NCBI GenBank assembly: GCA_014534095.1
Contig: JACVSD010000002.1
Location: forward strand, 1-41,058
Reading direction: 5' to 3'
Source: Nitrospiraceae bacterium
GTDB lineage: Bacteria > Nitrospirota > Nitrospiria > Nitrospirales > Nitrospiraceae
DNA: 41,058 nucleotides
Below the pieces are notes generated by a model, which was not told the origin of the DNA, searched no databases, and was given only the letters and a program-made list of their open reading frames with translations. A program made the translations under genes and the position numbers. Shown here piece after piece: positions 4,876 through 40,894 of this stretch (position 1 is its first letter; every line of letters begins with the position of its first letter).

Positions 4876-5445
4876 ATGGTACCTACGCATATGTTTCTGA
4901 CGAGAGGGGTCGGCGTACATAAGGAGAAGCTGGCCTCTTTCGAACAAGCCTTGCGCAGTGCCGGCGTCGCCTATTGCAATCTGGTCAGTGTCTCGTCGAT
5001 CCTTCCGCCGAATTGCAAGATTGTTCCCCGCAAGCGCGGTGAAAAGCTCTTGAATCCCGGTGAAATTACCTTTTGTGTCATGGCTCGTTCCGAGACCAAC
5101 GAGCGGAATCGCCTCATCTCCGCCTCGATCGGACTCGCGATACCAACCGACCGCCGGACCTACGGATATCTGTCCGAGCATCATGCGCATGGCGAAACGG
5201 ATGAAGAAACCGGCGAGTACACGGAAGACCTGGCCGCGCAAATGCTCGCGACCACGTTAGGCGTCGAGTTCGATCCGGACATTGCTTGGAAAGAGCGTGA
5301 GCAGGTCTTCAAAATGGCCGGGAAAATCGTTCGCACCTTGAATATCACTCAGTCCGCCGTCGGAAAGCCCAACAAATGGACCACCGTGGTTGCGCTCGCG
5401 GTCTTCATCCCTGAAGAAAACCTTCCCAAGCGTTCTCGCCGCTAG
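4876..5445 (+). CDS. pdaD: Pyruvoyl-dependent arginine decarboxylase
   Basis: This 189-residue proenzyme has the length and pattern of PvlArgDC. It self-cleaves at the serine pair in NLVSVSSILPP (expected between Ser40 and Ser41), giving a small beta chain and an alpha chain with an N-terminal pyruvoyl group. Other family segments are GEITFCVMARSETNERNR and GYLSEHHAHGETDEETGEY. The enzyme converts arginine to agmatine and CO2, the first step of polyamine synthesis. The ATG at 4876 follows AGAGGGGGCT. The ureohydrolase 59 bases downstream probably uses the agmatine. Confidence 0.92.
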   Translation: MVPTHMFLTRGVGVHKEKLASFEQALRSAGVAYCNLVSVSSILPPNCKIVPRKRGEKLLNPGEITFCVMARSETNERNRLISASIGLAIPTDRRTYGYLSEHHAHGETDEETGEYTEDLAAQMLATTLGVEFDPDIAWKEREQVFKMAGKIVRTLNITQSAVGKPNKWTTVVALAVFIPEENLPKRSRR

Positions 5446-5504
5446 ATTGTTGCTGGGGAATCCCCGATGCTAGATCTGCCCTGCTGTATGGTACAACAGA
5501 TCCC

Positions 5505-6437
5505 ATGACGCTTCCCGCTGGGTGGCTCGATTCGGACCACAACTTCCTAGGCCTCGATGAACCCTGGTGCCATCCTGAACAGGCGGGAGTCTATGTTTTG
5601 CCCGCTCCCTACGAACATACGTCCAGTTACATCCTCGGATCGGATCGCGGGCCTTCGGCCATCATTGAAGCCTCCGCACAAGTGGAATTCTACGATGAAC
5701 AACTTGACCGCGAACCGTTTCGTGAATGGGGCGGCATTGCTACCAAATCTCCCTTGGATCTTCGAGGCAAGGTGGATCGAGAAGCCGTGGAGGCGATTCA
5801 GGCCTTTGTCAGCCCTCACGTCGGTACCGGCCGTTTCGTTGTGACGCTGACCGGTGAACACACTGGCGCGCTTGGTGCCATCCGTGCGCACGCCGCCCGC
5901 TACCCTGGGATGTGCGTGGTGCAGATCGATGCTCACGGCGATCTTCGGGACGCGTATCAAGGAAATCCGTTCAGCCACGCCAGCGTGATGGCAAGGGTGG
6001 TGGAGGACGGTCACCCGCTCGTCCAGGTCGGAATCCGGTCCATCAGTCCGGAGGAGATCGAGCGCATTAAGAAGACGGATTGTATCACGACGTTCTTTGC
6101 GTCCAGGATCTTGGACCCGTCCGGTCCATATGGCGGTTACGCGTCCCGTTGGATTCCGGATGTCGTGGCGGCCTGCCGCGGGCCCGTCTATCTGACATTT
6201 GATTGTGACGGTCTTGACGCGTCTATCATGCCGGCTCTCGGCACACCTGAGCCTGGTGGACTCGGCTGGTACGATACCCTCAGCCTCATCACGGCGCTGG
6301 CCAATGGCCCCGGGATCATCGGAATGGACGTGAGTGAAATCGCGCCCATCGAAGGATTCGTCGCCCCGCAATTCTGCATGGCCCGCTTGCTGTATCGCAT
6401 CCTCGGTCGCATTCGAGCCGGCCGTCGCATCGCGTAA
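5505..6437 (+). CDS. speB: Agmatinase-type ureohydrolase
   Basis: This 310-residue member of the arginase/agmatinase family has the binuclear manganese ligands in order. These are His119 in TGEHT, Asp142/His144/Asp146 in IDAHGD, and Asp233/Asp235 in TFDCDGLD, followed by the family segment GTPEPGG. The first motif differs from the usual GGDHS, but the histidine is kept. Agmatinase hydrolyses agmatine to putrescine and urea, and the adjacent arginine decarboxylase makes that the best call. Urea release would suit an organism that uses urea nitrogen. The alternative is another guanidino substrate, since arginase-family guanidinases exist. Sequence alone does not fix the substrate. Confidence 0.85.
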   Translation: MTLPAGWLDSDHNFLGLDEPWCHPEQAGVYVLPAPYEHTSSYILGSDRGPSAIIEASAQVEFYDEQLDREPFREWGGIATKSPLDLRGKVDREAVEAIQAFVSPHVGTGRFVVTLTGEHTGALGAIRAHAARYPGMCVVQIDAHGDLRDAYQGNPFSHASVMARVVEDGHPLVQVGIRSISPEEIERIKKTDCITTFFASRILDPSGPYGGYASRWIPDVVAACRGPVYLTFDCDGLDASIMPALGTPEPGGLGWYDTLSLITALANGPGIIGMDVSEIAPIEGFVAPQFCMARLLYRILGRIRAGRRIA

Positions 6438-7182: not shown

Positions 7183-7950
7183 TTAGCGAGCAGTCGTCGA
7201 AGGATCGAGCGGCAAAGGGGAGGGCATAGGGGTGGAGGCCCCGTCTGCTTCGTGCACCACCCGCTCGTCCGAGCGGCGCCGGCTCATCAACAAATTGAGC
7301 ACGGCGATGAAGAAGCTGCCACCTACTAACAAGGTGCTGCTGTACTGAATGGTTCTCGTACCTTCATCCCGCATGTCTTTCGCTACGTCGGCCACTGTAT
7401 CCAGGAGTCGGTCCAGCGCGAGACTCACTTGGATCATCTTTGGTCCTCCATTGTCGGAGGCATGTTCCTCCGCCTTTCGGCGCAACGCTTCGCGGTCCTC
7501 GGTGGAGGCCATATTCCATTCCTGCGTGAGCAGTTGAATGGTGATGCTGGCCACGGAAAAGTACTGATCGAGGCTGCGGCGCACCGCCTCAATGTCCTCG
7601 GGTTCGCTGCGTCCGCTTCGTGAGACCCGCAAGCCGGCGGCCGCATACCGGTCGACGGCATGCTGGATCCGGGCTCGTTGATGCGGTAGTGATTCGGTGA
7701 TGCGCTCGAACTCATCTTTGTCATCCGCTTCCAGCGCGCGAATGATGGTGTTGCGATATCGAATGACGTCGGCGGAGATGTGCGCCAGGTCCGCAGCTCC
7801 GAGGGTGTATTCGGTGTACATTATGCGCAGATCTTGATCGATCTGGCTGAGCGCCTGGCCACTATACCATCCTAATGCGGCAATCAGGACACTGATGAGC
7901 AGCTGTGGAAAGGTCGGTTTCGGCATCGACACACGGGGCAAGAGGCGCAC
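7183..7950 (-). CDS. Two-TM membrane protein with four-helix-bundle sensor-like domain
   Basis: This 255-residue protein has one TM helix near residues 12-30 (LLISVLIAALGW) and a second near 207-224 (TLLVGGSFFIAVLNLLM). Between them is a long, charged, helical extracytoplasmic domain of about 170 residues, resembling four-helix-bundle ligand-binding domains of chemoreceptors and sensor kinases. The cytoplasmic tail is only about 30 residues and has no kinase, HAMP or MCP signalling module. The GTG at 7950 is preferred because AAGGAG precedes it, whereas the ATG at 7926 has none. It lies 14 bases after the ABC gene and ends the export operon. It may be an accessory or sensing subunit of that exporter. 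Confidence 0.7.
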   Translation of the reverse strand: MRLLPRVSMPKPTFPQLLISVLIAALGWYSGQALSQIDQDLRIMYTEYTLGAADLAHISADVIRYRNTIIRALEADDKDEFERITESLPHQRARIQHAVDRYAAAGLRVSRSGRSEPEDIEAVRRSLDQYFSVASITIQLLTQEWNMASTEDREALRRKAEEHASDNGGPKMIQVSLALDRLLDTVADVAKDMRDEGTRTIQYSSTLLVGGSFFIAVLNLLMSRRRSDERVVHEADGASTPMPSPLPLDPSTTAR

Positions 7951-7964
7951 AGGAACTCCTTCGC

Positions 7965-9629
7965 TCAGTCGAGAATGATCCGGCGGTCGACCTGAGATGT
8001 CAGATTGGGATCATTGGAGACAAAAATCACCGACCAGGGTTCGTCCTTGGAGCACAAGCGGCGCAAGATAGTTTCCCGCATGGTGGGTTGCATGTTGTGA
8101 ATGATGCCATCAAAGATCAGGATCTGCGGCCTCGCCAGGATCGCCCGCGCCAGCAGGATCCGCAGGATATGGGTCGGCGCCAGGACTATCCCTGGCATGC
8201 GCACGTGAGTCTTGATGCCTTGTGGCAGCGCGTCGATCTCTTCTTCGAGTTCGGTAAAGCGGAGTGCCCACCGCACATCGCTGTACGGGACATAGGCGCG
8301 GCCCAGGACGATGTTGTCTTCGATGGTACCTTCGAATAGCGAGAGCTGAGAATCCAGCATAAAGCCCCTGCAGCGATTGATGGCATCCAGGTCTAGATGC
8401 CGGAGATCGATGCCGTTATAGCGAATGACCCCGCTGCTGGGCGGTTCAAGTCCCGCCAGCACTCTCGCCAAGGCGGTTTTGGCCATTGTGGTGCTGGCGT
8501 AGATGCCGATCTTTTCTCCGGGCGTCACCTCCACGTTAAAGTTTTCAAAGACTGGAATCCCCGCATGGTTGACGGACAATTCCTTACAGGTGACGCGAAT
8601 GCCGTGCACGGTGGGATCAGGCAGCGGGACTGACAAGCTGGCGGAGTTCTGATCCTTCGGAAGGGAAAAGAAGGTGTCCAGCTCAGCCAGAGCGGTGAGA
8701 AAATAGTACACATGGCCCATGCGCTTGATGACCCCCTCAAAGTTTATGAGGAGGCCGCTGACGACTACTTCGGCGGCGACCAGTTGCCCGATCGTCAGCT
8801 GGCCGATAGACAGGAGCCATCCGGCTGTGGCCAGAACGCCGCTATGCGCGATAGCCTGCCAGGCAACCGAGCCCACATACTGCCTGAGCAGGACGGCAAA
8901 TCGCGCCCGCCGGCTCTCGACGTACTTACCTACCAGCTCATCAGTCCGGTGTATCAGCAGCGATTGGCTGTCCGTCGCTTTGAAGTGCAACAGGTTATAG
9001 GATATGTCCTGGACCCAGTGCAGCGCTTCGTATTTGGCGTGTGACATGTCGATGGTCGTTCGTAGCCCGCCATGTGACAGCATAAAGAAAATGATGTTGA
9101 AGCCTACGAGCAGCAATGCATCGAACAGCAGGAAGTACGGATGGTAAAAGACGAGGATGGTCATGCCGACGGCGCCGCCCACGACGACGTTGATCAGGTC
9201 CACGAGCAGTACGGACAATGCTCGCTGCATGAGGACCGCTTCCATAAAGTAGTTGGCGAAACGAGGTTTGAAGCCCTGGAAACGAACATGCGGCAGCTGC
9301 TGTGTCATGGCAATCGTGATGCGCGCAAAGACGCGTCGTTCGAGCACCTCGACTGCATAGTATTGGAGGGTCCTAAACGCGCCGACGAAGGCGAGTGCCG
9401 CCACCATGACGCCTGCGAGCGTGACGATCGTAATGGGCTGAATAGCAAAGGCGAACGTATTGACCAGTTCCTGGACCGTCAAAGGCACGATGAGTGAGAA
9501 CAGGCCGATCGCCAGAGAATAGGAAAATATGAGGGCGAGGATTCTTCGCTCCAGGCGGAACAGAAGGCCCAAATGACCTAGCATCGCCTGAAAGAGATTC
9601 GGCTGATTCTCAGTATGGTACTGCGCCAT
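7965..9629 (-). CDS. ABC exporter with degenerate ATPase domain
   Basis: This 554-residue protein has an ABC-exporter transmembrane domain (about residues 30-310, six hydrophobic helices) fused to a nucleotide-binding domain (about 340-554), with no N-terminal C39 peptidase. The ATPase motifs are abnormal. Walker A reads YASTTMAKT, so the glycines are lost and only Lys384/Thr385 remain. The LSGGQ signature reads LAPTH (483-487). Walker B is LIFDG, with Gly508 in place of the catalytic Glu. The H-loop is VSND, with Asn539 in place of His. The fold-marking LFEGTIEDNI is retained, so the gene looks intact rather than decayed. In type I secretion the ABC protein energises export through HlyD and TolC, whose genes lie upstream. 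Whether this one hydrolyses ATP is doubtful. Confidence 0.85.
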   Translation of the reverse strand: MAQYHTENQPNLFQAMLGHLGLLFRLERRILALIFSYSLAIGLFSLIVPLTVQELVNTFAFAIQPITIVTLAGVMVAALAFVGAFRTLQYYAVEVLERRVFARITIAMTQQLPHVRFQGFKPRFANYFMEAVLMQRALSVLLVDLINVVVGGAVGMTILVFYHPYFLLFDALLLVGFNIIFFMLSHGGLRTTIDMSHAKYEALHWVQDISYNLLHFKATDSQSLLIHRTDELVGKYVESRRARFAVLLRQYVGSVAWQAIAHSGVLATAGWLLSIGQLTIGQLVAAEVVVSGLLINFEGVIKRMGHVYYFLTALAELDTFFSLPKDQNSASLSVPLPDPTVHGIRVTCKELSVNHAGIPVFENFNVEVTPGEKIGIYASTTMAKTALARVLAGLEPPSSGVIRYNGIDLRHLDLDAINRCRGFMLDSQLSLFEGTIEDNIVLGRAYVPYSDVRWALRFTELEEEIDALPQGIKTHVRMPGIVLAPTHILRILLARAILARPQILIFDGIIHNMQPTMRETILRRLCSKDEPWSVIFVSNDPNLTSQVDRRIILD

Positions 9630-9750: not shown

Positions 9751-11229
9751 TTAGTCGCGTGCCCGATAAGTGACCGGCACGGCGCTCGGGCTGCTTTTGG
9801 CCCAGGCACCGATCGCCCACTGATAGAGGGCTTGCGCCTTGTGGTAATCCGCTTTCGCTCGGATGACCTGAATCTCGGAATCGACTGAATTTCGCTCTCG
9901 CAGGTTAACGAAGAGCACGCTCGTCGCCCCGAGGCCAAAGCGGAACCGTTCCCCCTCTTCCAAGGTCTTGGCAAGCCGCAACGATTGAGCGGCCGCTTCC
10001 ATGCGCTCCTTCGCTCGCTCCATGGCCGAGAGGGCGTTATCCACGTCCACGACGACTTGTTGCTCACGGAAGTGCTGAACGAGCACCAGTTTATCGGCTT
10101 GGGCCTGCGCCTCCAGCACTTGTCCGCGGCTTCGGCGTTGTAAAATGGGAATACGGAGTTCGACTCCGAACCGGTAGCCGAGTCCGAGGACGAACTTCTC
10201 CGGGGCCCGTGCCGGGGCGGCTTCCGCGTCCAGACTGGGCAGCAGGTTGTTTTTGGCCAGGGCGAGATCGATATTATTCACCTTCGCCTCGATGTCCACT
10301 TCCTTCACTTCCGGACGTTCTTGTCTTGCCTGGAGCTTATGGACCTTCACTGTATCTGCGGATGGAGAGAGCACGTGCGGAGGAAACTCCGGCACGCGAT
10401 CGGCGGGCGGGAGGGTGGGCGCGCCCTGCTCCCAAAGGAACATGGACAGTTTGAATTGCTCCTGCTCCAGGGTCCGTTGGGCCGCAATGGTGACTTCCCG
10501 GCGCCGCTGCACTTCCTGCCCCGCCTCCACCACATCCAGCGGCGCAACCGCGCCCGCCTTGGCACGGCCCTCTACCTGCTTATAGCGGTCTTCGGATACC
10601 GATAAGGCCCGTCTCTGTACATCGACATATTTGGTTGCGGCCACCCAATCCCAGAATTGGGACGCGGCCGCAAGGAAGAGGTCCTGCCTCGTCTGAGCGA
10701 TCTTTACGTCGGCACGAGGATCGGCCAATTCCGACCGCTGGAGCTCGGCGTTTTCCGGATTCACCACCAAGCCTCTCAACAGCGGAAAGAACCCGCCCAG
10801 AATGAGTTGTTGATTGTCGCCGATTGTAAGGTCGGGGATCGTGGCATCACCGATGGCCTGACGAAAACCTGCGCTGCCACGAAAACCCCAGGGGTGGCGC
10901 GCTTCAATCAGCGTGTCGTTGAAACCGACTGTCTGCGTGCCCCTTTGTGGATTTGAGCTGGAAATGAAACGCTCGAGTTCGGTGTCGTTGACGAGGATGG
11001 GTTCAAAGGCACCCAGGGCCTTCAACATTTTCCCTCGTGCCATCACCTTTTCCGTGCCGGCTCCCTTTAGGAGCGGATGCGAACGATCGATCCATGCATG
11101 CAGTTCGTCGAGGCTCAGTGGAATAGGCGGCAGCGGTTTAGCCGGTAACGACTCTAAAGGAGGCGCTGCTGCTGCCGCCAGCGGTAAGGCGAACAGCCAC
11201 ACGACCGTGAGCATTCTCAGGCACTTCAT
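9751..11229 (-). CDS. TolC-family outer membrane efflux protein
   Basis: This 492-residue protein has a signal peptide (LTVVWLFALPLAAAAA, cleavage near 22), then two repeated OEP halves with long amphipathic helices (for example near residues 200-260 and 385-450). It would form the trimeric outer-membrane and periplasmic tunnel of a tripartite exporter. The ATG at 11229 follows AAGGAG with ideal spacing. It lies between the adaptor gene (118 bases upstream) and the ABC gene (121 bases downstream), so it probably serves that system. The N-terminal third, before the first helical hairpin, contains an extra segment with FISSSNPQRGTQTVGF typical of divergent TolC relatives. The substrate is unknown. 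Confidence 0.85.
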   Translation of the reverse strand: MKCLRMLTVVWLFALPLAAAAAPPLESLPAKPLPPIPLSLDELHAWIDRSHPLLKGAGTEKVMARGKMLKALGAFEPILVNDTELERFISSSNPQRGTQTVGFNDTLIEARHPWGFRGSAGFRQAIGDATIPDLTIGDNQQLILGGFFPLLRGLVVNPENAELQRSELADPRADVKIAQTRQDLFLAAASQFWDWVAATKYVDVQRRALSVSEDRYKQVEGRAKAGAVAPLDVVEAGQEVQRRREVTIAAQRTLEQEQFKLSMFLWEQGAPTLPPADRVPEFPPHVLSPSADTVKVHKLQARQERPEVKEVDIEAKVNNIDLALAKNNLLPSLDAEAAPARAPEKFVLGLGYRFGVELRIPILQRRSRGQVLEAQAQADKLVLVQHFREQQVVVDVDNALSAMERAKERMEAAAQSLRLAKTLEEGERFRFGLGATSVLFVNLRERNSVDSEIQVIRAKADYHKAQALYQWAIGAWAKSSPSAVPVTYRARD

Positions 11230-11347: not shown

Positions 11348-12784
11348 TTACTTCGCACCTCGTCCGGCTTTGGGCAACAGCGTATCAATCAAGCTGGGTG
11401 GCCGTTCTTGATAATCCGGAGGAAACAGATTGAAACGCCGCCACAGCTCATACCATAGCGGCACGCGATTGAGGACGACCCACCCCATCGCTTTTGTACC
11501 TTGTCTGACATGGCTTTGATCGGGCCACGGACGATCTTCCGCATCCGGGACCACCCAGAACCGGAAGTTTCCCTTTCCGTCGTCCACTTGGTCCACCACT
11601 TTGATCACGCCGGAGTAAGTCCCGGCCATGAGCTCGGGCCAGGCCGGCAGCGGAATGGCCGGAATGCCGTAGAAAAGGATTTTGACTTTCCGGCCGACAT
11701 TCAAGAGCGGGGCATCGAGGCCGTCCGCGGTCATTTCGATCGCCTTATCAACACTCGTGGGAGAGAGTCGGACGATCTTGTCGCCCTGCCGCAAGGTTTC
11801 CCCAACGCCGGCTTGGGCCATTTTGACGATGGTGCCGTCAACCGGCGCCAGCACTCGGCTGGCCAGGCGGCGTTGCTCGGCGTTCGACTGCCGCAAGAGG
11901 ACATCGGCCAATTGGTCCGCGGCACGGCCCGCTTCCCCCACGGCCGCGTCGCGAGCCGCTTCGGCATCCAGCAGACGCTGCAGCACTTCCGCGTTGACTT
12001 GATTCTTCCCGAAGCTGAGGGCTTTCATCGCCTGCTCGGCGCCCTTCAGGTTGGCCTCCGTCGCCTGAAGATCGGCCTGGGTTGAGATCGCCGACTGGAG
12101 AGCTAATTCCAACTCGCGTTGGGACACGAGTCCTTGTTCGGCCATTTGTCGATGGCGATCGACATTGAGACCCGCTGTCGCAACAGCAATTTTTGCCGCC
12201 TCCACCCTTTGTCGAGCTTCGCGCACCTTGTTTTCAGCTTCTACCACGCGCGCTTCGGCGGACGGCACCGCAGCTCTCACCAGGTTCTGCATTTCCTTGA
12301 TGCGCTTGTCCAGTTGCTCGGCGCGAGACAGGGCGGCCTGTCGAGTGTCTTCCAAGGCCTTCTTGCGTTGAGCCAAGAAAGTTAATAAGCCGGGCGCCAT
12401 GAAATTGGGGTCGTAATCGTCTAATTCAAGGATCAAGTCTCCTTGCTTGACCCGTACCCCTTCGAAGACATGCCATTTCTTGATGCGGCCCGTAATCTGC
12501 GCCTCAATATCCTGGGGGCGCTCATATGGATTATAGGCAGACAATTGGCCGGTTACCGTAATCGTTTGAGTCCAAGGAACGAAGGCGATAATAAGCAGGA
12601 AGAGGACGACCAGCTTGATAGCGAGACGCGACGAAAACTTCAGCCGTTCCGGTATTTGAACGGCTTCCCAAGATCGGAGCTTGGTTGATGTGGCCAGATT
12701 GTCAATGGACAGTTCGTCCAGACCGGATTCCTGCTGGACGAGCGATCGGACTTTATTCTTGAATCCCAGACCCAGGCGAGCCAC
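11348..12784 (-). CDS. HlyD-family periplasmic adaptor
   Basis: This membrane-fusion protein has about 478 residues from the GTG at 12784, which follows an AAAGGGGGG tract. A TTG at 12868 would add 28 residues but has no ribosome binding site. A cytoplasmic N-terminal segment precedes one TM helix (LAIKLVVLFLLIIAFVPW). A biotinyl-lipoyl-like half (ITGRIKKWHVFEGVRVKQGD), a long Ala/Glu/Arg-rich coiled-coil hairpin, the second lipoyl half (VLAPVDGTIVKMAQAGVGE) and a beta-barrel region follow. It bridges the inner-membrane transporter and the TolC-like channel encoded next in the operon. Two further Trp/Pro-rich stretches (PAIPLPAWPE and the C-terminal RVPLWYELWRRFNLFPP) are unusual for the family. 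Confidence 0.85.
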   Translation of the reverse strand: MARLGLGFKNKVRSLVQQESGLDELSIDNLATSTKLRSWEAVQIPERLKFSSRLAIKLVVLFLLIIAFVPWTQTITVTGQLSAYNPYERPQDIEAQITGRIKKWHVFEGVRVKQGDLILELDDYDPNFMAPGLLTFLAQRKKALEDTRQAALSRAEQLDKRIKEMQNLVRAAVPSAEARVVEAENKVREARQRVEAAKIAVATAGLNVDRHRQMAEQGLVSQRELELALQSAISTQADLQATEANLKGAEQAMKALSFGKNQVNAEVLQRLLDAEAARDAAVGEAGRAADQLADVLLRQSNAEQRRLASRVLAPVDGTIVKMAQAGVGETLRQGDKIVRLSPTSVDKAIEMTADGLDAPLLNVGRKVKILFYGIPAIPLPAWPELMAGTYSGVIKVVDQVDDGKGNFRFWVVPDAEDRPWPDQSHVRQGTKAMGWVVLNRVPLWYELWRRFNLFPPDYQERPPSLIDTLLPKAGRGAK

Positions 12785-12982
12785 GGACCCCCCTTTATAT
12801 GCCGTCTGCGAGGGAGCGGTAGGAGCGCTGACCCAACCATCATAGAAGAAAAGAGCTGGCGGGGTCAATTTTGGGAAGGAATTGCACTAAAATCGAGAGG
12901 CGGAGGCCGCCTTGACCATCACCGGCGGAGTCGTTAAGGTGTCGCAATTTTCACGAGAGGGCGAAACAGGAAAGGGGTGGGC

Positions 12983-37407: not shown

Positions 37408-39054
37408 TCAAACGAGCGCGACGATAATCGCTTCGTCGGGCCTAAGCTCAAGTCGACCGCACATCCAGCCGGACCGGCTTTCTGTCTCATCATACGTGGA
37501 CAGCAGCACATCTCCATTCCGTTGCACCTCTGACACGGTACAAGACACGTGGCGGGCAGCAAAGTTGACGCCAACGAGCACATCCGGTGCTCCGTCGGCC
37601 GTGGAGTCCGCCGCAATGGTTCGCACGAAGGCAAGGCAATCCGGATCGCCTGTTTCGAGGGCGCGATAGGTCCCGTCCGCGAGTGCCGGCGTGATTTTCC
37701 GAAGGCGAAGGAGTCGCCGATACAGAGCCAGCAATGAGGACGGATCCTTCGATTCCCGTTCGACGTTCTCGGTGGCTGCATTGCGGGAGACAGGCAGCCA
37801 GGGACGTCCGGTCGTAAAACCCGCCTGGGGTGACCCGTCCCATTGCATCGGGGTGCGGGCCGGATCTCGGCCGGTGCGAAACGGCCAAAATCGCTTGGTG
37901 TACGGATCGCGCAAGTCCCGGTACCGTAACCGCCCGTTTCGCATGCCGATCTCTTCTCCGTAATAGACAAACGGCGTTCCTCGGAGCGTGAATAACAAGA
38001 CGGCGGCCGCCCTGGCGCGCCGTCCGGCATCGCCGCCCGCACCATACCGGTCGATGTGGCGGGATTGATCATGATTGCTGAACACGATGGAGGGCCAACC
38101 CGCGGCCGGTACCGTCCGGTCGGCGTCCGAGATCACGTCCTGAAAGCGATCACGGCGCCAGGGCGACTTGAGCAGCCGGAAGTCGAAGACGGTGTGCAAC
38201 TCGTCCCTCCCGTTTCCATAGAAGGCCGCTGGGCCGCCCGGCGTATCAGCGGAGGCTTCGCCGATCAGGACCATGCCGGGAACATCTGCGACGAGTGCCC
38301 GTAGCTCCCGCATGACCTCGTGCGCGAGCGGCTGATCACGGTCGTAGCAGTGAACCTGCCTGGTGTAGCCGCGCCAACCGAAGCGTACCGGATTGTTCGG
38401 CCAGCGCACATCTTTGCCGAGCCAGTTGATGGCATCGAGCCGAAATCCCTGCACGCCACGCCTGATCCAGAACCGTATGACATCGTGCATCTTGGCTCGC
38501 AGGACGGGGTTGCGCCAATTCAGATCGGGTTGATGGGACAGGAAGGAGTGGAGATAATACTGCCGCGAGCCGGGGTCCCAGGTCCATGAGGATCCGCCAA
38601 AACGCGCGTTCCAGTTACTAGGGGGTCGTCCGAATGACCGACCGTCCGCCCAATAGTACCAATCGCGCTCGAGCGCCGAACGGGAGGAGCGTGCCTTTTG
38701 AAACCACGGATGCTGATCCGAGGTGTGGTTCAAGACCAAGTCCATGATGATTCTGATGCCGCGCCGGTCCGCCTCACGCGCCAGCCGGTCGAAATCTTCC
38801 AGGGTGCCGAACCGTGGATCGACATTGCAGTAATCGGCCACGTCGTAGCCGAAGTCCTTCATGGGGGAAGGATAGATGGGCGAGAGCCAGATGGCGTCGA
38901 TTCCTAAGGAGTCCGGCGTGCCATCATTCAGATAGTCCAGTCGTGACAAGATTCCGGGAAGGTCTCCGATGCCGTCGCCATTGGAGTCCTGAAAACTCCA
39001 GGGATAGATCTGATAGACCACGGCGGACTGCCACCACAGCGGATGGGACGTCAT
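37408..39054 (-). CDS. GH13 alpha-glucosidase / oligo-1,6-glucosidase type
   Basis: This 548-residue GH13 enzyme has the three catalytic acids Asp207 (GFRLDAINW), Glu266 (LIGEASADT) and Asp329 (FSNHDQSR). WWQSAVVYQIYPWSFQDSNG at the N-terminus and DLVLNHTSDQHPWF are typical of the alpha-glucosidase/oligo-1,6-glucosidase/sucrose-isomerase group. The small 'B domain' and FVYYGEEIGM are normal. It would release glucose from maltose or short oligosaccharides, feeding on products of the glucan pathway. No signal peptide is seen, so it is cytoplasmic. Its ATG overlaps the upstream ABC gene stop (ATGA). Confidence 0.88.
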   Translation of the reverse strand: MTSHPLWWQSAVVYQIYPWSFQDSNGDGIGDLPGILSRLDYLNDGTPDSLGIDAIWLSPIYPSPMKDFGYDVADYCNVDPRFGTLEDFDRLAREADRRGIRIIMDLVLNHTSDQHPWFQKARSSRSALERDWYYWADGRSFGRPPSNWNARFGGSSWTWDPGSRQYYLHSFLSHQPDLNWRNPVLRAKMHDVIRFWIRRGVQGFRLDAINWLGKDVRWPNNPVRFGWRGYTRQVHCYDRDQPLAHEVMRELRALVADVPGMVLIGEASADTPGGPAAFYGNGRDELHTVFDFRLLKSPWRRDRFQDVISDADRTVPAAGWPSIVFSNHDQSRHIDRYGAGGDAGRRARAAAVLLFTLRGTPFVYYGEEIGMRNGRLRYRDLRDPYTKRFWPFRTGRDPARTPMQWDGSPQAGFTTGRPWLPVSRNAATENVERESKDPSSLLALYRRLLRLRKITPALADGTYRALETGDPDCLAFVRTIAADSTADGAPDVLVGVNFAARHVSCTVSEVQRNGDVLLSTYDETESRSGWMCGRLELRPDEAIIVALV

Positions 39055-40805
39055 ACGGGCCCGATGAGCCGGTCTTTACCGGCCGGTTCATGAAGGCGAA
39101 GGGTATAGAGGTAATGATAGAGACCTTGTTTATCGAGAAGCTCTGCGTGAGTCCCTTGCTCGACCAGGCGGCCTTTATCCAGGACGAGAATGCGATGAGC
39201 CCGTTGAACGGTCGAGAGACGATGGGCGACCACAAAAGTGGTGCGGCCCTTCATGAGTCGTTCCAGAGCGTCCTGCACCAGTCGTTCGGATTCGGTGTCC
39301 AACGATGACGTGGCCTCATCCAGCAGGAGAATGCGTGGATTCTTGAGCAGCGCGCGGGCAATCGCAATCCGTTGTCGCTGGCCGCCCGAAAGATTCACTC
39401 CTTTTTCTCCCACCACTGTCCGGTAGCCATCGGGAAAGCGCACGATGAAATCATGGGCATAGGCCGCTTGGCTCGCTTCGTGAATTGCGGCTTCATCGGC
39501 TCGGGGATTGCCATATCTGATGTTGTCCAGGATCGTCCCTCCGAACAACACCGTTTCCTGTGGCACGAGCGCCACCTGACGGTACCAACTTTCGGCGGTC
39601 ACGGTCCGAAGATCTTGTCCGTCGACCACAATGCGGCCCTCAGTCGGGTCATAGAATCGATGGAGCAAGTTCATCATAGTGGTCTTGCCGGCTCCGGTCG
39701 GGCCGACGAACGCGACGACCTCTCCGGGCAGGGCATCAAATGAAACGTCCGTCAGCACGGGAGAACGTGGATCGTAGCTGAACTGCACGTGGCACACCTG
39801 CACATGGCCGATGACCGGGCCAAGCGGCTGTGCAAGCGGTTGGTCTTGCACGTCTGGTCGTGCGTCCAATATTTCGAAGACACGCTGCATGGCCCCTTGC
39901 GCTTCTTTGATCTGAGCGAACACCCGCGCGGCCGAACTGAAGGGACCGATCAAAATGCCGGCGAACAACACGAACGCAAAGAGGTCCCCAGGCGTGACTA
40001 GGCCGTCGATCACCTGGTGCCCGCCATACCAGAGAACGGCGGCCGCTGCCGAAAAGGTTAGCAGGCTGATAACGGGAATAAAGATGGCCATGATGCCGGC
40101 TCGCTGCACGGTCAGGCCGAGGGTCTGCTCGACCTGCGTTGTAAACCGGTGGTCTTCGCGCCGTGTCTGCACGAAGGACTTCACTATGCGGATCCCAGAA
40201 ATCACCTCTTCGATGAGCGTGCTCAAGGCCGCGGTTTGATCCTGGATCGCAATGGAGAGTGATTTGAGCCGGCGTCCGAAGAATTTGGCCACCAGGACCA
40301 GCAAGGGGAGCAGCACCAGAATGAGCAGACAGAGCCTCCAATTCATGGCCAGCAGAAACGCGAGCCCCCCCACTAAAGTGACGAGCTGTTTGACGCTGTC
40401 GATGGGGGTTTCCGTCACCACGGATTGCATGACCGTCACGTCGTGCATGAGGCGGGACAGGAGTTCACCGGTGCGGCGACGGGCGAAAAAACTCACGGAG
40501 AGCGTCTGCAGGTGCCCGAAGAGATGCCGGCGAAAGTCGGCCACGACGCGCTGAGAGACCCAGGCGGTGAGGTAACTGTGTCCCATCGAGCAGAATCCCT
40601 GCACCACGACCAGTCCGAGGAACAGGCCGATTAAGTGCGTCATCTGTGACGGGTTCCGTTCCACCGTAATGACGTCCCACAAAGTGCCGGCCAGGCGAAG
40701 GAGCGCAAGATTAATGGCGGCGACGCCCATGACGAGGACACCCGCGATGATCATGCGCGTGACATAGGGGCGCAGGAAAGGAAGAAAGCGTTTGAAAGTC
40801 AGCAT
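39051..40805 (-). CDS. MsbA-like ABC exporter
   Basis: This homodimer-type exporter has about 584 residues from the ATG at 40805. A TTG at 40838 would add 11 residues. Six TM helices occupy roughly residues 15-300. The NBD is fully canonical: Walker A GPTGAGKTT (near 370), Q-loop LVPQETVLFGGTI, signature LSGGQRQRIAIARALL (near 470), Walker B ILLLDEATSSLD, and H-loop VVAHRLSTV. The family exports lipid A precursors, lipids or drugs. The gene overlaps the GH13 start, which may be only physical coupling. It contrasts with the degenerate exporter at 7965-9629. Confidence 0.88.
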   Translation of the reverse strand: MLTFKRFLPFLRPYVTRMIIAGVLVMGVAAINLALLRLAGTLWDVITVERNPSQMTHLIGLFLGLVVVQGFCSMGHSYLTAWVSQRVVADFRRHLFGHLQTLSVSFFARRRTGELLSRLMHDVTVMQSVVTETPIDSVKQLVTLVGGLAFLLAMNWRLCLLILVLLPLLVLVAKFFGRRLKSLSIAIQDQTAALSTLIEEVISGIRIVKSFVQTRREDHRFTTQVEQTLGLTVQRAGIMAIFIPVISLLTFSAAAAVLWYGGHQVIDGLVTPGDLFAFVLFAGILIGPFSSAARVFAQIKEAQGAMQRVFEILDARPDVQDQPLAQPLGPVIGHVQVCHVQFSYDPRSPVLTDVSFDALPGEVVAFVGPTGAGKTTMMNLLHRFYDPTEGRIVVDGQDLRTVTAESWYRQVALVPQETVLFGGTILDNIRYGNPRADEAAIHEASQAAYAHDFIVRFPDGYRTVVGEKGVNLSGGQRQRIAIARALLKNPRILLLDEATSSLDTESERLVQDALERLMKGRTTFVVAHRLSTVQRAHRILVLDKGRLVEQGTHAELLDKQGLYHYLYTLRLHEPAGKDRLIGPV

Positions 40806-40894
40806 GCGAGGTGACGCACTCCGGTCAGACGCGCACAAGACGATGAGCCAGTGGAAAGGGAATGCCGAGATCGGGTTAGGGGAGAAGCGGTAGC

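What the first reader, a model, noticed from the sequence alone, without database searches (positions are those of the whole stretch)
7965..9629. Type I-like exporter whose ATPase has lost almost every catalytic motif
Seen: Walker A has no glycines (YASTTMAKT), LSGGQ is LAPTH, the Walker B glutamate is Gly508 and the H-loop His is Asn539, yet the frame is open, the fold-marking LFEGTIEDNI is kept and the operon around it is complete. Known: these residues are required for ATP hydrolysis in ABC exporters, including type I secretion. Inference: the complex may be a pseudo-ATPase exporter, driven differently, or a non-transporting envelope bridge. No second ABC half lies in the operon to form a hybrid ATP site.
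Basis: partly seen in the sequence, partly recalled or inferred. Interest (0 to 1): 0.7.

Follow-up and report, generated by a model that had tools for sequence, protein, structure and literature searches.

The report
Exporter family with fossil ATPase domains
A bacterial export-machine gene, and the 489 relatives compared with it from three phyla, keep an ATP-burning domain that lacks key residues for burning ATP, so the machine is likely driven by something else, perhaps an ion gradient.

Summary
The 554-aa ABC exporter (7965-9629, minus) lacks the Walker A glycines, LSGGQ, catalytic Glu (Gly508) and H-loop His (Asn539); Lys384, Thr385 and Walker B Asp507 remain. It is not decaying: the losses recur throughout the Nitrospira copies, and dN/dS of the dead domain is about 0.08. 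Relatives in Bacteroidota and Alpha- and Gammaproteobacteria are dead too: of 490 family proteins none keeps both catalytic Glu and His at the aligned positions and none has Walker A, SGGQ and DE together; 21 of 21 ordinary exporters keep all scored motifs. Membrane-domain-only searches of 516 genomes show a sharp gap between the family and ordinary exporters. In 99 of 106 loci the gene lies with a HlyD-type adaptor and a TolC protein, but 10 of 10 second-locus Nitrospirota paralogues stand alone. Nineteen loci carry two tandem halves, both dead. The family has fixed membrane-domain residues absent from controls, among them acidic residues at 94 (485/490) and 287 (487/490). I propose an ion-coupled, SbmA-like exporter in a type I-like conduit; the ATP-site loss is shown by sequence, the energy source is inferred. 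No assay exists.

The parts
7965..9629 (-). pseudo-ABC exporter subunit, 554 aa (membrane domain about residues 12-325, degenerate NBD 346-554)
8475..8498 (-). Walker A position, residues 378-385 (ASTTMAKT): no glycine, Lys384 and Thr385 kept
8352..8354 (-). Q-loop position: Asp426 where controls have Gln (Gln428 follows two residues on)
8169..8183 (-). signature position, residues 483-487: LAPTH in place of LSGGQ
8106..8111 (-). Walker B Asp507 kept; catalytic Glu position is Gly508
8013..8015 (-). H-loop His position is Asn539
9348..9350 (-). Glu94, in predicted helix 65-114 (TM2 and its cytoplasmic extension), family-specific acidic residue
   Evidence: acidic in 485 of 490 family proteins, in none of 21 controls; helix from the model
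8769..8771 (-). Glu287, in predicted helix 280-302 (TM6), family-specific acidic residue
   Evidence: acidic in 487 of 490 family proteins, in none of 21 controls; helix from the model
9751..11229 (-). TolC-type outer membrane factor, 492 aa
   Evidence: PF02321, E 4.6e-34
11348..12868 (-). HlyD-type periplasmic adaptor; the open frame begins at a TTG at 12868, orthologues suggest a start near 12784; conserved C-terminal VPLWYELWRRFNLFPP stretch
   Evidence: PF13437; alignments A5, A6; model
7183..7950 (-). 255-aa four-helix-bundle (4HB_MCP_1) protein 14 bp downstream; accessory seen only in Nitrospira-type loci
   Evidence: homologue in 44 of 76 loci; none in the 30 Pseudomonadota loci or in L001-L003

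Best explanation
The gene encodes a conserved ABC-exporter subunit that lacks the residues needed to hydrolyse ATP and would work, with its adaptor and TolC partners, as a type I-like export machine likely driven by an ion gradient. Shown by sequence: family-wide loss of the ATP site, purifying selection on the dead domain, the three-gene module in most loci, and membrane-domain glutamates that the ordinary exporters compared lack. Predicted: the whole exporter fold, dead NBD included, is retained (best match HlyB). Inferred: protonation of Glu94 (cytoplasmic end of TM2) and Glu287 (TM6) replaces ATP binding and hydrolysis as the switch between inward and outward states, as protonation of the glutamate ladder does in SbmA; the dead NBDs remain as a clamp that holds the two halves together, and the adaptor and TolC carry the substrate out of the cell. 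The substrate is unknown.
For: Of 490 family proteins, at the aligned positions 9 keep the catalytic Glu, 4 the H-loop His, none both; 21 of 21 intact controls keep all six scored features. With a tolerance of one or two residues 2 of 490 (L143, L144) have both Glu and His, neither with Walker A; by pattern anywhere in the last 230 residues none has Walker A, SGG[QEMR] and DE together. dN/dS (gene-wide dS) is 0.069 for the membrane domain, 0.080 for the NBD and 0.078 for the former motifs, 482 non-independent pairs. Membrane-domain-only model: in 398 Pseudomonadota genomes 11 hits at E <= 6.7e-114, next best 1.7e-14; in 118 Nitrospirota genomes 37 hits at E <= 3.7e-91, next best 2.5e-12. None of the 11 is intact, nor any of 38 family proteins in 30 Nitrospirota loci. 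Membrane-domain tree separates 57 family members from 20 controls, 100/99. Position 94 acidic in 485/490, 287 in 487/490, Gln250 in 490/490, Trp205 in 488/490, none of these in the 21 controls. Adaptor and TolC genes in 29 of 30 Pseudomonadota and 70 of 76 Nitrospirota-type loci, the seven others on short or cut contigs. Both halves dead in 19 of 19 tandem loci. Precedents: SbmA (PMC13316013), LmrA Glu314 in TM6 (PMC6155054).
Against: No assay; ion coupling rests on conserved glutamates and analogy. Glu94 lies near the cytoplasmic end of TM2 (local hydropathy -0.13) and could be a gate or coupling residue. I did not map the SbmA glutamates onto this family. 109 of 122 Bacteroidota members and one Pseudomonadota member (L134) keep a Walker A pattern, so some may still bind ATP. 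Losses at the H-loop and Q-loop depend on alignment: 17 of 490 have a His within one residue of the H-loop position (three of them in the Nitrospira-type group), 66 Bacteroidota members have a Gln one residue beside the Q-loop position, and 179 Nitrospira-type members have one two residues away. Ten of ten second-locus paralogues in Nitrospirota genomes (L080-L082, L211-L217) have no adaptor or TolC gene in the stretch fetched (about 3-10 kb a side), so the conduit is not obligatory for every copy, unless it is shared in trans.
Confidence: 0.45

Rival explanations
1. The pseudo-ABC protein is a passive, gated inner-membrane base that anchors the adaptor and TolC; substrates enter from the periplasm or leave down their own gradient, with no energy coupling.
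For: The ATP site is lost family-wide; the adaptor has a C-terminal stretch shared by the family's adaptors and absent from one bona fide type I adaptor, which suggests a dedicated partner.
Against: The membrane domain is under strong constraint (dN/dS 0.069) and carries invariant polar residues, more than an anchor should need; 10 of 10 second-locus paralogues have no adaptor or channel nearby to anchor.
Confidence: 0.22
2. ATP still drives it: either by slow, non-canonical use of the residual Lys384/Asp507 and a shifted Q-loop, or by pairing with an intact ABC half encoded elsewhere in the genome so that one composite site works.
For: Lys384 and Asp507 are invariant in the closest 121 sequences; most listed Bacteroidota members keep a Walker A pattern (109 of 122); Gln428 stands two residues from the Q-loop position; the five genomes examined hold other ABC proteins, and 20 of these were fetched as control candidates, of which all 18 scored keep the motifs and the two dropped show Walker A and DE; heterodimeric exporters such as TmrAB and BmrCD are among the fold matches.
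Against: Walker A Lys is absent in 123 of 123 Sphingomonadales-type and 28 of 30 further Pseudomonadota members, Walker B Asp in 121 of 122 Bacteroidota members; tandem pairs are dead on both sides, 19 of 19; no other gene cluster recurs in more than 9 of 30 loci beside ABC, adaptor and channel.
Confidence: 0.17
3. The NBD binds a nucleotide or another ligand as a sensor and the complex is a regulated signalling or scaffolding bridge, with the four-helix-bundle protein as its periplasmic sensor in Nitrospira.
For: The 4HB_MCP protein sits 14 bp downstream in this operon and a homologue lies in 44 of 76 loci; LysR-type regulators lie in 9 of 30 Pseudomonadota loci.
Against: No homologue of the four-helix protein in the 30 Pseudomonadota loci, and no signalling domain found in it by Pfam.
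Confidence: 0.1
4. A decaying pseudogene.
For: Loss of nearly every catalytic residue.
Against: dN/dS about 0.08 on the NBD; 96 of 101 matched reading frames from 79 loci are 500 residues or longer, the five short ones being three contig ends and the two pieces of one split frame in L023; the same replacements recur across Nitrospira.
Confidence: 0.01

Closest known systems
Type I secretion system ABC exporter (HlyB/HlyD/TolC; PrtD; LssB)
   Different: ATP-hydrolysis motifs lost; scores far below the NCBIfam type I cut-offs (116.8 against 693.1 for LssB); no recurring substrate gene found; the adaptor has a C-terminal stretch absent from one bona fide type I adaptor (L176).
SbmA/BacA (SLiPT) secondary peptide transporters
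   Same: ABC-exporter-type membrane domain; the proposal here is the same drive, by protonation of membrane-domain glutamates (PMC13316013).
   Different: SLiPTs lack the NBD and the coupling helices; this family keeps a dead NBD. SbmA imports peptides; this family is encoded with a TolC-type channel.
Heterodimeric ABC exporters with one degenerate site (TmrAB, BmrCD, TM287/288; the degenerate site is recalled, the structures appear)
   Same: Fold; loss of catalytic residues in an NBD.
   Different: Here both halves of tandem pairs are dead (19 of 19).
LmrA ion-coupled ABC exporter
   Same: A TM6 glutamate needed for ion coupling (Glu314; PMC6155054).
   Different: LmrA also uses ATP; Glu287 lies about two turns from the periplasmic end of the predicted TM6 and was not shown to be equivalent to Glu314.

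Membership tests
Type I secretion system | ABC exporter + HlyD-type adaptor + TolC-type channel encoded together | tested here: met
   window; 99 of 106 loci; not met in 10 of 10 second-locus Nitrospirota paralogues
Type I secretion system | ABC exporter fold of the inner-membrane component | tested here: met
   predicted model, pLDDT 83.2, best match HlyB; prediction only
Type I secretion system | ATP-hydrolysis motifs of the ABC subunit | tested here: not met
Type I secretion system | NCBIfam type I models above cut-off | tested here: not met
Type I secretion system | secreted protein substrate | tested here: inconclusive
   no widely recurring neighbour beyond adaptor, channel and a LysR regulator in 30 loci; substrates can lie elsewhere
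SbmA-like peptide transporters (SLiPT) | no NBD | tested here: not met
   degenerate NBD present, PF00005 34.3 bits against cut-off 25; NBD fold predicted
SbmA-like peptide transporters (SLiPT) | glutamate ladder in the membrane domain | tested here: inconclusive
   acidic residues 27, 94 and 287 are family-specific but were not mapped onto the six SbmA glutamates
SbmA-like peptide transporters (SLiPT) | proton-driven transport | not testable with these tools
   needs a transport assay
Heterodimeric ABC exporter with one degenerate site | one complete composite ATP site | tested here: not met
   0 of 19 tandem pairs hold a catalytic Glu or H-loop His in either half; a partner elsewhere in the genome is not excluded
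Pseudogene | relaxed selection or broken frame | tested here: not met

The most novel reading that the evidence does not exclude
A phylum-spanning class of envelope-spanning exporters has traded ATP for an ion gradient while keeping its ATPase domains as fossils: secondary-active type I-like secretion, in which dead NBDs serve only as a mechanical clamp and membrane-domain glutamates supply the drive.
Probability: 0.4. Interest if true: 0.87.

Novelty: new variant of a known kind. Interest (0 to 1): 0.72.

Why it matters
ABC exporters are defined by ATP use. SbmA showed that such a membrane domain can run on protons without an NBD; a family that keeps the NBD but has lost catalysis would look like the missing intermediate and could show how a primary transporter turns into a secondary one. 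It also means that genes annotated 'ABC transporter ATP-binding protein' in these genomes probably encode a machine that cannot hydrolyse ATP. Two family-specific glutamates make the question directly testable by point mutation.

Tried and rejected

Limits. The 490 sequences are not an even sample (120 listed of 1454, 2466 and 6297 matches of three searches, plus loci; 492 before identical ones were dropped). The group called Nit holds three gammaproteobacterial rows (L074, L075, L077). Controls: 21 of 23 candidates were used; two (L160, L165) were hidden by an antisense frame and carry Walker A and DE too; one (L171) is missing from the tree, where rows under 200 residues were dropped. Controls had to show a Walker A pattern, so their intactness at that motif is by selection; the other motifs were not selected for. 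dN/dS is a simple Nei-Gojobori count on non-independent pairs, and dS between the window and its nearest locus is already above 1. Bacteroidota could not be surveyed genome by genome. The tree has long branches and no inferred root. H-loop and Q-loop counts depend on the alignment.

Papers: PMC13316013 outline, abstract, section 6 and passages; PMC6155054 start of abstract and passages; PMC8277102 passages of the first 300,000 characters; PMC4452313 abstract and passages; all others only as search listings. That no description of this family was found rests, in an open-access library only.

Full report
Check of the observation. The open reading frame at 7965-9629 (-) encodes 554 aa. Pfam recognises it only as a weak ABC_tran (34.3 bits, cut-off 25). 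Against 21 intact exporters, the Walker A glycines, the signature glycines, the catalytic Glu and the H-loop His are replaced; Lys384, Thr385 and Asp507 are kept. The Q-loop Gln aligns with Asp426, but a one-residue insertion makes that spot uncertain and Gln428 stands two residues on. An intact ABC exporter gene at 39051-40838 of the same window serves as one of the controls.

It is conserved, not decaying. In the window protein plus the 120 listed matches, Gly508, Asn539, Asp507, Lys384 and Asp426 are invariant (121 of 121). A scan of one genome per species gave 76 loci, mostly Nitrospira; none of the 91 distinct family proteins of 500 aa or more in them has a Walker A pattern, a catalytic Glu or an H-loop His at the aligned positions. 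The window's gene order (purEK, adaptor, TolC, ABC, four-helix protein, pseudouridine synthase, agmatinase-family gene, arginine decarboxylase) is kept in many of them, for example N. moscoviensis (L007, 89% identity), so the window is a likely Nitrospira. dN/dS with gene-wide dS is 0.069 (membrane domain), 0.080 (NBD), 0.078 (former motifs) over 482 non-independent pairs with dS 0.1-1.2.

It is a family in three phyla. A protein search of plasmids led to Persicobacter (Bacteroidota) and Sphingobium/Novosphingobium relatives at 27-29% identity, and database searches from these gave 120 listed members each. Across 490 distinct proteins (215 Nitrospirota-type, 123 Sphingomonadales-type, 122 Bacteroidota-type, 30 further Pseudomonadota), at the aligned positions the Q-loop Gln is kept in 0, the catalytic Glu in 9, the H-loop His in 4, and none has both Glu and His; a Walker A pattern is kept in 0 of 215, 0 of 123, 109 of 122 and 1 of 30. 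The 21 controls keep all six scored features. None of the 490 keeps six or more of eight canonical residues; controls keep seven or eight. As a check on the alignment, allowing one residue either way gives His in 17, Glu in 26 and both in 2 (L143, L144), neither with Walker A; and Gln near the Q-loop position in 66 (one residue) or 245 (two residues). By pattern in the last 230 residues, 375 of 490 have none of Walker A, SGG[QEMR] and DE, and none has all three. So the loss of a complete site holds under these tolerances, while the loss of the Q-loop Gln by itself is less certain.

The loss belongs to the lineage, as judged without the NBD. A tree of membrane domains alone puts 57 family members on one side of a 100/99 branch and 20 ordinary exporters on the other. 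A membrane-domain-only model finds 11 hits at E <= 6.7e-114 in 398 Pseudomonadota genomes and then nothing better than 1.7e-14, and 37 hits at E <= 3.7e-91 in 118 Nitrospirota genomes and then 2.5e-12. None of the 11 Pseudomonadota proteins, of 38 family proteins in 30 Nitrospirota loci or of ten second-locus paralogues is intact. I found no member with a complete NBD. The least degraded that I saw is L134, from an unnamed Pseudomonadota genome (Walker A and Walker B Asp kept, catalytic Glu replaced by Gly, signature LSTTQ), and most listed Bacteroidota members keep a Walker A pattern. This fits, but does not prove, early loss of catalysis followed by loss of nucleotide binding in the other groups. 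Distribution is patchy: 21 of 118 Nitrospirota genomes, 11 of 398 Pseudomonadota, 21 of 147 in the order of G145, 9 of 98 in the family of G496.

The machine. Adaptor and TolC-type genes lie on the same strand within 4 kb in 29 of 30 Pseudomonadota loci (the other locus is a 4.9-kb contig), and adaptor and TolC genes are found in 70 of 76 Nitrospirota-type loci, sometimes with the adaptor on the other strand; the six others are short or cut contigs. The Bacteroidota plasmid loci L001, L177 and L178 show the same three genes. Clustering of neighbours in the 30 loci gives only ABC (30), channel (27 by that gene caller), adaptor (24) and a LysR-type regulator (9) in more than five loci. The adaptors share a C-terminal stretch (GWP...WP...WYELWR..N.FP, with variation) that one bona fide type I adaptor (L176) lacks; the model shows one membrane helix, strands of a lipoyl-type domain and a long hairpin. 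In 19 loci two ABC halves stand in tandem, and neither half has a catalytic Glu or H-loop His. Against a strict tripartite rule, ten of ten second-locus paralogues in Nitrospirota genomes, N. moscoviensis and N. defluvii among them, show no adaptor or channel nearby and are dead as well; they might use the operon's adaptor in trans or pair with its half, which I could not test.

What is known. It is like a type I system in its parts but fails that family's ATPase feature, and like SbmA in the proposed drive but keeps the domain that SbmA lacks. Literature searches returned no description of such a family; the library is open-access only. Public annotation calls the proteins 'ABC transporter ATP-binding protein' or 'ABC transporter transmembrane domain-containing protein'.

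Noticed in passing
window 7183-7950 (-): A 255-aa protein with a four-helix-bundle sensory domain (4HB_MCP_1) but no signalling domain found by Pfam follows the pseudo-ABC gene by 14 bp; homologues in 44 of 76 loci, none in 30 Pseudomonadota loci.
   Followed up: partly
L080-L082, L211-L217: Ten orphan pseudo-ABC paralogues in Nitrospirota genomes, N. moscoviensis and N. defluvii among them, without adaptor or channel genes in the stretch fetched; N. defluvii has four copies in all.
   Followed up: partly
L003 1362-3914 and L079 156-3404: The inorganic-carbon transporter subunit DabA (PF10070) lies beside the module in a Sphingobium plasmid and in a Nitrospirales genome; not seen in 30 Pseudomonadota loci.
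   Followed up: yes
L129, L131, L132, L133, L137, L138, L142, L144, L153: A LysR-type regulator lies near the module in 9 of 30 Pseudomonadota loci; four of them match best a query that looks NhaR-like to me (name recalled, not searched).
   Followed up: no
L134 8980-10638 (-): The least degraded member seen: Walker A and Walker B Asp kept, but no catalytic Glu or signature glycines; a possible look at the ancestral state.
   Followed up: partly
window 4876-6437 (+): Pyruvoyl-dependent arginine decarboxylase and an arginase-family gene lie side by side, probably an arginine-to-putrescine pair.
   Followed up: no
L023 2356-4128: The only copy in the set seen with a split reading frame away from a contig end; assembly error or a broken gene was not decided.
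   Followed up: no
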